A stretch of 54,175 nucleotides of DNA, from NCBI RefSeq assembly GCF_000002865.3, contig NW_001865050.1, forward strand, positions 473,583 to 527,757. The letters are read 5' to 3'. Source of the DNA: Monosiga brevicollis MX1. Lineage: Eukaryota; Opisthokonta; Choanoflagellata; Craspedida; Salpingoecidae. Below the pieces are notes generated by a model. The model had not been told where the DNA came from. It was given only the letters and a program-made list of their open reading frames with translations, and did not search any database. Shown piece by piece: positions 3,942 through 12,087 of the stretch (positions are counted from its first letter, which is position 1; every line of letters begins with the position of its first letter). The translations under genes and the position numbers were made by a program.

Positions 3942-5702
3942 TTATTGGTGGACGCGGTGTATAACAGCCCAAGCCAAAGCTGCACCCACCGCTGCGGCCC
4001 CCACTCCGATGGTCCATGCTGATGGACTAGATGCAGGGACAAGTGGTCGCGCCTCCACGCGGCGGAGGCGCTGCTCAAGTTCCAAGCGCAGGCGATGTTC
4101 CTGAGCCCAGCGCTCGTCATTGTCGCCCCCCACCACAGGGGTGGCGAGGTCACCAGCAGAGCGGCGCGCAAGCTGAGCCAGCGCTAGATCTGCGAGAACG
4201 AGAGCAGCCATTGCCTCCACAATGGGAATGGCTCGAGGTACGACGCAAGGATCATGACGGCCTTTGGCGGCCACGACATCATCCTCGCCTTGGAAATTGA
4301 CCGACTGTTGCTGCTGGCCAATGGTGGCGGGAGGCTTGAAGGCGATGCGAAAGACGATATTTTCGCCGTTGGAAATGCCGCCCTGGATGCCACCCGAGTT
4401 GTTGGTGGCAGTGCCTAGGCCATCTCCCTTTTTGACAAAGAGATCATTGTGTGTCGATCCACGCATCCTGGTTCCACTAAACCCGGACCCAACCTCAAAC
4501 CCCTGAGGCAATGTCCATTGCAAAACGCGCATGTTAGGCATTGTTCGCGTGGGAGGATGCAGCACAGAGTGAGCATGGGCAGACATGCCAACGGACGTGG
4601 ACGCAGCCACGCACCTTGGTGGCTGGGATGGACATCATGGCGTGCGCCAATTTGGCTTCAAGCTTATCAAAGCACGGCTCACCCCAACCGGCTGGGACAT
4701 TGCGACAGACACACGAAACAACGCCACCCGTGGAATCTTGCTTGGCTTTGCAATCCTTGATGACATTGCTGAAGCGCTCCACAGCTTCGGCGGTGCCACT
4801 CCGCACTGGTAGATGCTCGTCAACCTGCGAAAAGCATTGTTTGGGCAGAAGGGGCGCATGTCGTTGCAAACAAAAAAAGTGCCGTCAGGGTGGCAAGGGA
4901 GCCTATTAGGGTGTTGGGCATGAGCAGAGTTTGTGCCAGCTCGAACCTGTTCGCGGGTAATGGTGTCGACGTCGACGTCCGACTCTGTTTCTGAGCCCAC
5001 AGCCGATACCCAAGCCACAATTTCAATGCCAAAAGCCTCTCGGAGCCACTTTTCAGCAATTGCTCCACCGGCGACGCGACCAATCTAGATGGATACCAAA
5101 GGCCACAAAATGGGAGAGACCCAAAAGCAGCAGCTGTGAGGAGGGGGAGGGCATGGCGTGCCGTGGTCTGGCTTGATGCAGAGCTGTTGTGCATAACATA
5201 CCGTTTCACGAGCCGAGGACCGGCCACCTCCGCTGGAGGCATGGGTGCCATATTTGCTCATGTAGGTGAAGTCAGCGTGCGAGGGGCGGGGGGCATGGGA
5301 AGTTGACCCGTAATCCTTGGGCCGCTGGTCTTGATTCGGGACAAAAAGCCCGATGGGCGTCCCGAGAGTGCGGCCAAATTCAGTGCCAGACATGATGGTA
5401 ACCCGATCACTCTCATTGCGAGGCGTTGTCAGCTTTGATTGTCCTGGACGGCGGCGCGTCAGCTGTGGCTGGACGTCCTCTTCCGTCAGCGCCAGACGTG
5501 GAGGTACTCTGATCATATCCACGGACGTGAGGGTTGTAAGAGAGGCACAGTTTGAGGCCGGGCGCGCGCGGGGCGAGGAGCGGGCGGAGGTTTGCCTCAA
5601 ACGCCGAATGCGCGGTGCTTACCCATCCACAATGGCGCCGACTCCCTTGCAATGGGATTCACCAAAGGTGGTGACCCGGAAATAGGTGCCAAAGGTGCTC
5701 AT
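3942..5702 (-). CDS. ARO2: Chorismate synthase with hydrophobic C-terminal extension
   Basis: Catalyses step 7 of the shikimate pathway, EPSP to chorismate, using reduced FMN. Five exons: 5702-5623, 5508-5202, 5084-4947, 4824-4615 and 4502-3942; all junctions are in phase, giving 431 aa. The start is fixed by the classic N-terminus [20 protein letters not shown]. Other signatures are RRRPGQS, GTPIG, RPSHAD, the GRSSARET motif, [30 protein letters not shown] and [13 protein letters not shown]. The family core ends soon after [11 protein letters not shown]. About 70 further residues follow: an Arg/Glu-rich segment, then a hydrophobic stretch ([17 protein letters not shown]) and the short basic end IHRVHQ, a tail-anchor-like layout not normal for the enzyme. 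It is divergently paired with AROM, which makes its substrate. The symbol follows the fungal orthologue. Confidence 0.95.
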
Positions 5703-6393
5703 GATGCCGGGCCTTCAAAGAAGCAGGAGAACGGAAACAACAATCCTCAAAGTGAATTTTTGGCAGACAGGCAAGCGCAATTGTGTTGTCGAGTCTCACG
5801 TCGAATCACAGCTGATTCTAAACACCATTGGTTCCCAGAACCATCAAGTTCATTTCCTTACTTCAACAGCTGCACACCACGCCGCCAGACCTGATCAGCC
5901 CAGCTCTTCCCCTCCCCCTCCCCCTTGCGATAACTTGCTCCGCAACCACACGACTGCACGAGATGATGGTGATGGTGATGATGATAACACGATACCTTGG
6001 AAAAGCGCGGGAAAATGGCACAATTTGTCGACAAATCAAGTCGGTGTTTTGTTTTTGTTGTTTCCTTTGAGGTGATGCCGATAATTTTGAATGCCTGGGT
6101 CCATAAAAACTTGTCGACTTTGGTTCAAAGTTTACTGGACCGACTCGGAACAAGAAGACGCCGCGGCTCTGAAGTGGAGGGGCGCCCGTCGGCTGCTGGC
6201 AGCGGCTCCATTTTTTTTTTCCGCACTTGCGGCGGTTGCACCGCTTTTTTTTCTTTTCGCTTGGCACACCGATCCAAGCCTGTTCTTGCTGCACGCAGTG
6301 CGTCCTTGATTGGTCGGTTGCCCGCCAGCTCTCGAGGGGGTACGGCAGGCCTTTACTCGACCAGCCAATCTCGGTTCAGGCGTCCTTCCAGCC
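5703..6393. promoter_or_regulatory. Shared divergent promoter region, chorismate synthase / AROM
   Basis: This 691-bp gap separates the two divergent start codons, so it must hold both 5'UTRs and both promoters. It contains pyrimidine tracts (around 5900-5930), a run of GATGGTGATG-type triplets near 5963-5985, and T-runs at about 6211-6220 and 6245-6252. I could not identify a TATA box or a known operator with confidence. Confidence 0.6.
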
Positions 6394-9300: not shown

Positions 9301-12087
9301 TCAAGCGTGGCGTACCCGTGGAATGCTATCGCGATCACCGAATTGCGATGAGTTTTGGCGTGCTGGGTTGTCTCTGGCCCAACGTGCAAATCACTGACAA
9401 GGATTGTACCGACAAGACGTACCCCAGCTTCTGGGACGATGTCTGCAACCTGCAGGGTCATCGCAACGCCGTCTTGCACGCGTCCATTGAGGAACAGACT
9501 TCCGCAGCGGCGGGCAGCGCAGGACACGCCGGTGCTCGTGACCGACAGAGCGTCTGCATTATTGGCATGCGCGGGGCAGGCAAGTCCACGCTTGCGCGGG
9601 CTGCGGCCGCCCATCTGGGTTATCAGTTCTTGGATCTGGATGTGGTGCTGGAGGAGCGATGTGAAGGGGGCATCAAGACCTTTGTTGAGCAGCAGGGCTG
9701 GCCCGCCTTTCGAGATGCCGAGGAGCGGGTGCTGGCCGACACTTTGCGAGCACATCCGACTGGCGCGGTAATTGCTTGTGGGGGTGGTATTGTGGAGCGC
9801 GAGGCCAATTGTGCCGTTCTCCAGGCCACAAAACTGCCCATCATCTGGCTTGACCGCCCGTTGGTGGACATCGAACGCTACCTGGCTGCCGACGGCGTTC
9901 GTCCTGCTTATCTGGAGGAAGTGGCGGAGGTGTACGCTCGGCGTCAGCCTCGCTTTGCCGCGTGCGCCGACTGGCGCTTTCCAGTGGCCGAGGGAGCCAC
10001 GGATCTGTTGTGTTGGAAGCAGCACTTTGGGCGCCTCTGTGCCCTGGCGACTGGACTGAGCCCGCGCGTACCTGCTTGGGTTTACTCCAAGTTTGTGTGC
10101 TTAACGCAGCCAGATGTGCGTGCCGTGCCCGCGGCACAATTGGCGGAAATCGTGGCCAATGCTCAGGCCGTGGAGCTGCGGGTTGATTTATTGGCCTCCC
10201 TTACAGAAGACTACATCGCGACGCAGGTGGCCGCAATCCGGTCCGCGACCAAGAGTCCCATCATTTTCACCGTTCGCACAGAGCCTCAAGGTGGGCGCTA
10301 CGCAGGCTCCCCGGCCAAGTACGCCGCGCTGCTACGCGTTGGCATCCGCCTCGGGTGCGAGATTGTGGATGTTGAGGCTGACCTGCCCAGCGACGAGCTG
10401 CGCCAGCTCACGCGCTTGGTACCTGCAAGCACCACCCTGCTGGGTTCACTGCACTTCTTGCGCCCTTGTGGTGGGGCCCAGGAACTGACGGCGGCTTTGC
10501 ATAACTGTGCACTTGGCGGACGTGCCGACTTGCTCAAGGTCATTTTTACTGCCGACACGCCCGGTGATGCGTTGGCGCTCGTGGAGGCGTATCGGGTGTT
10601 GCGCGGCACGCTATCGCGCCCGGCCATTGTGATGGCCATGGGACAGGCGGGCAAGCTGACGCGAGTGCTCAATGACCAGCTCACGCCAGTGACGCATCGT
10701 CTTCTCACCACGGCGGCAGCGCCCGGCCAGCTGACGGCGCAGCAGCTTGACGACATGCGTGCGGAGCTCGGGCTGTTCCCGAAGCGCAACTTCTTTTTGT
10801 TTGGCGAGCCGATAGCGCTCTCTGCCAGTCCACTGATGCATAACACTGTGTTTGCAGACCTCAAGTTACCTTACACCTACCAACGCTGCTCAACCAGCAA
10901 TGCGCTTGACGCCATCACCTGTCTGCAGGGCACGAACTGTGGTGGCGGGAGCGTCACGATGCCTCTCAAGGAGCGATTGGGTCATGTGTTGGTCGATGTC
11001 GACGTGCCAGGGCGCGTCATTGGTGCTGTCAACACTATTGTCAAAGACAGCCAGGGACAGTTACATGGCTTTAACACAGACTACCTGGGCATCTTGGCTG
11101 CGCTACGGGACGCAGGAGCGCCATCAGCACCTCGTGCTGCCCTAGTCTTGGGTGCCGGGGGCACGGCTCGTGCAGCTGTGTACGCTTTGCAACAGCTTGG
11201 CTGCCACCGAATTGTGGTGGTGAACCGCACCGCTGAGCGGGCGCTGGCTCTGGCAGAGCAGTTTCGCGTGGAGCATGCTGCCGACTTGATGGCAAGCACG
11301 GCATATACTTATGATATCGTCGTTAGCACTGTGGCTGCGACCGCCAATTTGACGGTGCCCGAAGTGTTGCTGACCGCAAGGTGGGTCATTGTGTTTGTGT
11401 CTCGTACACTGTGTTTACGGTCGTTTTGTTCGCCTTTGGCCGTATGTTTTGCGAGTGGTTTTTTTTCATTTTTTTTTTTTTCGTTTCCATTCCGTTGTAC
11501 TTTCCGCTCTTTTCCTCCTCGTCGTGTGTCCACCAGTTTGCTGTACACATTCTGCAGCCATCTCATTCACGGATCAGCTGTTTGATAACAAGTGCTGATA
11601 CCGTATTAGCGGTCTGCTACAACAAAATTCCAGGCTCGGCCACCAATATCGCTCGGCGTTGCATGCCCTCGCGATGGGCGCCCAGCCAAATTTTCTTCTT
11701 GTCCTTTTGATGTCTCAAGCATCGTCTGCTTTTTGTCAATCTTCTTTTCAGTGTCCACCCTCTTCTTTTTTTCATGACGCCGATCACTGTGCTCACTCGT
11801 GTAACATCATCTTTTTTGTTTCTTTCTCTTTTAGCCGGCCTGTGGTCCTGGACGCAGCCTACATCCCCTACAAGACCGCCCTTATCCTGCAGGCCGAGGC
11901 AGCGGGCTGTCGGGTTGCGCACGGCATCGACATGTTGCTGCATCAAGGGCTGGCACAAGCTCAGCTCTTTTGCGGTGGCACAACCTTGTCGTCTGAGCTT
12001 CAGAAGAAGGTTTGGGCCCGCGTGCACGCCTGCTACCAAGCCATGCTGGCAATGGAACCCGCCGAGCGGGTCATGCCCAACATTTAG
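6394..12087 (+). CDS. ARO1: Pentafunctional AROM polypeptide (shikimate steps 2-6)
   Basis: Converts DAHP to EPSP in the cytosol by five fused activities. Exons 6394-6591, 6744-7329, 7437-7552, 7649-7854, 7978-8215, 8325-8765, 8856-11380 and 11835-12087; every phase agrees, giving 1520 aa (yeast Aro1p is 1588). Domains in order: 3-dehydroquinate synthase, residues 1-370 ([33 protein letters not shown]); EPSP synthase, 370-805 ([19 protein letters not shown]); shikimate kinase, from about 830 (P-loop GMRGAGKS); type I dehydroquinase, from about 1008 (LLGSLHF His and DLLKVIF Schiff-base Lys); shikimate dehydrogenase, from about 1238 to the end ([25 protein letters not shown]). All catalytic motifs I looked for are intact. 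The start is chosen because [20 protein letters not shown] aligns with AROM N-termini. EPSPS-C, kinase, dehydroquinase and most of the dehydrogenase sit in one 2.5-kb exon. Confidence 0.96.

What the first reader, a model, noticed from the sequence alone, without database searches (positions are those of the whole stretch)
3942..12087. Shikimate steps 2-7 packed as one divergent gene pair
AROM (steps 2-6) and chorismate synthase (step 7) are head-to-head with 691 bp between start codons. Both are complete, with all junctions in phase. Only DAHP synthase is missing from a full route to chorismate. Such physical linkage of the two nuclear genes is not something I know as a general eukaryotic feature, and it would allow co-regulation from one promoter in a lineage next to animals, which lost the pathway.
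Basis: partly seen in the sequence, partly recalled or inferred. Interest (0 to 1): 0.72.

Follow-up and report, generated by a model that had tools for sequence, protein, structure and literature searches.

The report
Neighbouring AROM and chorismate synthase genes
In a compact protist genome the two ordinary genes that carry out steps 2 to 7 of the pathway for aromatic amino acids lie back to back; the arrangement is real, but shared control is untested, and the gene for step 1 was not found in the sequence that could be searched.

Summary
Chorismate synthase (CS; minus strand, 5702 to 3942, 5 exons) and a pentafunctional AROM gene (plus strand, 6394 to 12087, 8 exons) are head to head, 691 bp between start codons, no N between, inside a 1.1 Mb contig. 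All 11 introns are GT-AG; joined frames give 431 and 1520 aa. Pfam finds the five AROM activities in the usual order and a full-length CS. CS and the AROM dehydroquinase match only here.

691 bp is ordinary spacing for such genomes. No TATA or Gcn4-type site was found between the genes. Conservation and co-expression could not be tested. Best reading: two normal neighbouring genes, possibly co-expressed.

Unexpected: five searches with four DAHP synthase profiles found no convincing match, nor did one with Chorismate_bind, although chorismate mutase, two prephenate dehydratase loci and tryptophan enzymes were found. Either the pathway lacks its first step, or those genes lie in sequence not held, reading N, or too broken by introns.

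The parts
3942..5702 (-). chorismate synthase gene, 5 exons (5702-5623, 5508-5202, 5084-4947, 4824-4615, 4502-3942), 431 aa
   Evidence: in-frame GT-AG splice model; PF01264 1-327/327, 448.8 bits; best solved relatives are chorismate synthases 7rca and 1r52; 3 exon matches in the searched genome, all here
3942..4160 (-). C-terminal extension of CS (residues 360-431), with a weak candidate membrane helix [19 protein letters not shown] at 408-426 followed by HRVHQ
   Evidence: lies beyond the end (residue 359) of the two best matches to solved CS; mean hydropathy 1.81 over 19 aa, below the highest stretches of AROM (1.89) and of the CS core (2.03); weak
5703..6393 (.). 691-bp region between the two start codons, presumed to hold both 5' UTRs and promoter(s)
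   Evidence: 0 N, GC 0.52; no TATAAA or TGACTC on either strand; TTGTCGAC at 6025 and 6111
6394..12087 (+). pentafunctional AROM gene, 8 exons (6394-6591, 6744-7329, 7437-7552, 7649-7854, 7978-8215, 8325-8765, 8856-11380, 11835-12087), 1520 aa
   Evidence: in-frame GT-AG splice model; five activities in AROM order; matches solved AROM 6hqv over residues 13-1495; DHquinase_I matches the searched genome only here

Best explanation
Two ordinary, intact nuclear genes of a gene-dense, intron-bearing protist (choanoflagellate by inference) stand head to head. The AROM protein takes DAHP through five steps to EPSP and chorismate synthase makes chorismate, which can feed phenylalanine and tyrosine through the chorismate mutase and prephenate enzymes found elsewhere in the genome. 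The short shared upstream region holds the promoters of both genes, which may or may not be coordinated. Shown: gene identity, integrity and arrangement. Inferred: function in the pathway, any co-expression, and the reason for the adjacency.
For: Splice models open and in phase; all domains present; best solved relatives are AROM polypeptides and chorismate synthases (that these entries are fungal is recalled); CS and DHquinase_I match only at this locus; downstream enzymes found: chorismate mutase and, on the same strand, prephenate dehydratase on C40, and prephenate dehydratase, PDH_N and aminotransferase matches in a row on C17. Close spacing is usual (local example). In the 47 bacterial loci fetched, 10 held a CS match, in all 10 on the same strand as the query match, so the divergent pair does not look like a transferred operon.
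Against: No expression data and no gene order from any relative could be obtained, so 'merely neighbours' and 'functional unit' are not separated. The adjacency of exactly these two genes would be unlikely for a pair named in advance. DAHP synthase was not found, so flux through the route is not assured.
Confidence: 0.72

Rival explanations
1. A selected functional unit: the region 5703-6393 acts as a bidirectional promoter that keeps AROM and CS levels matched, so that EPSP does not build up.
For: Head-to-head with less than 1 kb between, the working definition of a candidate bidirectional promoter (PMC2871058 passages); consecutive steps of one pathway; functionally linked head-to-head pairs exist in unicellular holozoans (integrin alpha/beta in Capsaspora and Corallochytrium, co-expressed in Capsaspora; PMC5560861 passages).
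Against: No shared control motif found; spacing is ordinary; the other pathway genes found lie on C17, C40, C44 and C56; 'relatively little gene synteny' between M. brevicollis and S. rosetta (PMC4054682 passages), though PMC5560861 reports more within this pair than across lineages.
Confidence: 0.2
2. The adjacency is an assembly join, or the genes are a contaminant.
For: Reads were not available. The 1-kb windows 9001-10000 and 10001-11000, inside the long AROM exon, have the highest GC of the window (0.609 and 0.612; all others 0.466-0.586).
Against: No N between the genes; inside a 1.1 Mb contig; 11 GT-AG introns; eukaryotic genes nearby (TFIIH C1-like, Diaphanous-type formin domains, ubiquitin-S27a, spectrin/CH protein).
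Confidence: 0.03

Closest known systems
Pentafunctional AROM (solved: 6hqv, 7u5s) with chorismate synthase (solved: 7rca, 1r52); fungal entries, organisms recalled
   Same: Same five domains in the same order; CS full length
   Different: In S. cerevisiae ARO1 and ARO2 are on different chromosomes (recalled); here they are neighbours. CS has 72 residues beyond the match to 7rca and 1r52
Acanthamoeba shikimate enzymes
   Same: Fused shikimate enzymes in a protist
   Different: Described as a quadrifunctional rather than pentafunctional arrangement (PMC6029752 passages)
Bacterial aro gene clusters (for example L053, L066)
   Same: DHQS, EPSPS, SDH and CS relatives close together (in L062 no SDH match)
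   Different: Separate genes in one direction; here a fused AROM gene with introns and a divergent CS gene
Head-to-head gene pairs in unicellular holozoans (integrin alpha/beta, PMC5560861)
   Same: Divergent, functionally related neighbours in close relatives of animals
   Different: Those are conserved between Capsaspora and Corallochytrium and co-expressed in Capsaspora; neither is known here for AROM/CS

Membership tests
Pentafunctional AROM | DHQS, EPSPS, SK, DHQD I and SDH domains in one open frame, in that order | tested here: met
Pentafunctional AROM | catalytic residues of all five domains kept | tested here: inconclusive
   19 motif strings were located, but they were picked from this sequence and their roles are recalled; the printed alignment to 6hqv agrees but was cut within the shikimate kinase domain
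Pentafunctional AROM | all five enzyme activities | not testable with these tools
   needs protein; in C. albicans one AROM domain is inactive (PMC9074039 passages)
Chorismate synthase | full-length Chorismate_synt domain | tested here: met
   PF01264 1-327/327
Bidirectional-promoter gene pair | head-to-head, under 1 kb apart | tested here: met
   691 bp
Bidirectional-promoter gene pair | shared regulatory motif | tested here: inconclusive
   no TATAAA or TGACTC on either strand; TTGTCGAC twice, one of 13 repeated 8-mers; no relatives to compare
Bidirectional-promoter gene pair | co-expression | not testable with these tools
   no expression data held
Bidirectional-promoter gene pair | order conserved in relatives | not testable with these tools
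   no relatives of the genome held; AROM scan of viral contigs gave no relative; genome contigs gave 47 loci, all with bacterial record titles; 2 of 47 were checked for open frames and hold separate genes
Complete shikimate pathway | a DAHP synthase in the genome | tested here: not met
   4 profiles in 5 searches: PF00793, PF01474 (twice), TIGR00034, TIGR01358; only a 32-residue match at E 0.226, judged spurious by eye; completeness of the searched genome not measured

The most novel reading that the evidence does not exclude
This predatory protist keeps an intact AROM-CS pair and post-chorismate enzymes but has lost DAHP synthase and anthranilate synthase component I, the two committed steps. 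It would then run a 'headless' aromatic pathway on intermediates taken from bacterial prey, or use an unrecognised DAHP-forming enzyme: a stage of pathway loss next to the animals.
Probability: 0.2. Interest if true: 0.6.

Novelty: new member of a known kind. Interest (0 to 1): 0.3.

Why it matters
As a gene pair it adds one more example of neighbouring genes for consecutive steps of a pathway in a likely relative of animals, and gives a compact region in which co-regulation can be tested. If the absence of DAHP synthase and of chorismate-binding enzymes is real, it would show a half-dismantled aromatic pathway in the sister group of animals, which bears on how animals came to need dietary aromatic amino acids.

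Tried and rejected
A transferred bacterial operon was considered and rejected: in the 10 of 47 bacterial loci that held a CS match, CS lay on the same strand as the query match, and the genes here have introns. A shared control motif was looked for in the intergenic region and in the C40 and C17 loci; nothing stood out. A type II DAHP synthase candidate on C21 (E 0.226) was read and rejected by eye. A membrane anchor on CS was considered; hydropathy alone does not set it apart from soluble stretches. tRNA and Rfam (gathering threshold) scans of the window gave 0 matches. AROM scans of viral contigs and genome contigs gave no locus labelled eukaryotic.

Ten literature searches listed 3 to 20 papers each, some of several hundred matches; no listed title or shown abstract reports this pair or a choanoflagellate DAHP synthase. 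Most listed papers were not opened. Term searches inside PMC4339202 and PMC9560156 gave no relevant passage; in PMC7971027 'shikimate' and 'chorismate' do not occur.

A set of 20 further stretches, meant to measure how much of the genome reads N, was not obtained, so completeness is not measured.

Full report
What is there. Two genes stand head to head: CS on the minus strand (ATG 5702, stop 3942) and AROM on the plus strand (ATG 6394, stop 12087), 691 bp apart with no N. All 11 introns are GT-AG and the joined frames give 431 and 1520 residues.

Identity. Pfam finds in AROM, in order, 3-dehydroquinate synthase, EPSP synthase, shikimate kinase, type I dehydroquinase and shikimate dehydrogenase; CS matches the whole Chorismate_synt model. 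The best solved relatives are AROM 6hqv (query residues 13-1495) and CS 7rca and 1r52 (that these are fungal is recalled). The motif check (24 strings, 19 in AROM and 5 in CS) used strings picked from these sequences, so it only locates recalled catalytic motifs and is no independent test. CS has 72 residues beyond the match to the two best solved enzymes; a membrane helix there is possible but weakly supported. In the searched genome CS gave 3 exon matches and DHquinase_I 1, all at this locus.

Is the arrangement special? S. rosetta has a mean intergenic distance of 885 bp (PMC11160669, passage); PMC5560861 gives medians of 900-1200 bp for Creolimax, Sphaeroforma and Salpingoeca (passage). 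A coding-potential script plus Pfam suggest another head-to-head pair, EF-hand and MORN genes, about 660 bp apart in this window (ends approximate, and the segment nearest the gap on the EF-hand side was not itself scanned with Pfam). So 691 bp is ordinary. For a pair named in advance, adjacency would have a chance of about 2 in 9,000 (gene number recalled, own reckoning), but this pair was noticed after the fact. [quoted passage not shown] Integrin alpha/beta pairs are head to head in Capsaspora and Corallochytrium, and co-expressed in Capsaspora (PMC5560861, passages). On choanoflagellate gene order the papers differ in tone: relatively little synteny between the two sequenced species (PMC4054682, passages), yet more within that pair than across lineages (PMC5560861).

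Tests of a shared promoter. The 691 bp contain no TATAAA and no TGACTC on either strand. TTGTCGAC occurs at 6025 and 6111; in the window its only other occurrence is the minus-strand half of the palindrome at 6025. It is one of 13 8-mers that occur more than once in the 691 bp, so it does not stand out. One copy lies in the C40 locus, about 2.9 kb upstream of the chorismate mutase frame. This is no evidence for or against co-regulation. No relative of the genome is held. A scan of viral contigs with AROM found none. A scan of genome contigs gave 47 loci with bacterial titles; a CS match lay within the fetched flanks in 10 of 47, in all 10 on the same strand. Two of the 47 were checked for open frames and hold separate genes.

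The rest of the pathway. Twelve genome searches were made, six with and six without a convincing match. Found: CS, DHquinase_I, prephenate dehydratase at two loci (the two C40 matches each contain one TGA, as expected if they run into introns), chorismate mutase, tryptophan synthase alpha and IGPS. Not found: DAHP synthase type I (PF00793 at E 0.001, TIGR00034 at E 10), type II (PF01474 at E 0.001 and at E 10, TIGR01358 at E 10), and Chorismate_bind at E 0.001. The only weak match, 32 residues at E 0.226 on C21, looks spurious by eye. Limits: a six-frame search without introns, a genome that may not be wholly held, and stretches that read N. Against a pure detection failure, prephenate dehydratase exons of 48-66 residues were found at 35-42 bits. 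Two missing enzymes in otherwise populated pathways can equally mean missing sequence.

What the literature says. [quoted passage not shown] PMC6792448 lists Anth_synt_I_N, Shikimate_dh_N and PDT among domains lost at the stem of animals, hence present in the ancestor shared with choanoflagellates (passages); this speaks against an old loss of anthranilate synthase in the lineage, though not against a loss in one species. Guedes 2011 reports an initial deficiency in Choanozoa and that their phenylalanine pathway might need complete genomes to settle (PMC3287585, passages; section 5). Kasalo 2025 calls choanoflagellates primarily prototrophic (PMC11988736, passages), also against the headless reading; its source paper was not held. 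The passages seen do not name DAHP synthase in a choanoflagellate.

Verdict. I file the genes as members of known families and the pair as a new example of a known kind of arrangement. The missing first step is the more interesting lead, at low probability until searched in complete data.

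Noticed in passing
whole genome G000: No convincing DAHP synthase (type I or II) and no Chorismate_bind match, although AROM, CS, chorismate mutase, prephenate dehydratase and several tryptophan enzymes were found.
   Followed up: partly
L010:892-4636 (-), contig C17: Prephenate dehydratase, TyrA-like dehydrogenase (PDH_N) and class I aminotransferase matches in a row on one strand. One open frame of 527 aa appears by eye to run from an ACT-like end through the dehydrogenase into the start of the aminotransferase, so they may be one fused gene.
   Followed up: partly
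L009:3888-5692 (-), contig C40: Chorismate mutase (CM_2) followed on the same strand by prephenate dehydratase; possibly one fused gene, not shown.
   Followed up: partly
L017:104-2433 (+), contig C56: Tryptophan enzymes in a row: Glycos_transf_3 (TrpD-like), IGPS and PRAI; the TrpD-like part and the start of IGPS share one open frame, as do the rest of IGPS and part of PRAI.
   Followed up: partly
window 3942-4160 (-): Chorismate synthase has 72 residues beyond the best solved relatives, with a Gly/Ala-rich hydrophobic stretch near the end; a tail anchor is possible but weakly supported.
   Followed up: partly
window about 27118 (-) and 27779 (+): Another apparent close head-to-head pair, EF-hand and MORN genes, about 660 bp apart.
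   Followed up: no
window 1502-1936 and 2090-3526 (+): Weak match to GH127 beta-L-arabinofuranosidase (E 0.00089, below the Pfam cut-off) in 1502-1936; the frame 2090-3526, presumably the same gene, has no Pfam match and ends about 415 bp from the CS stop.
   Followed up: no
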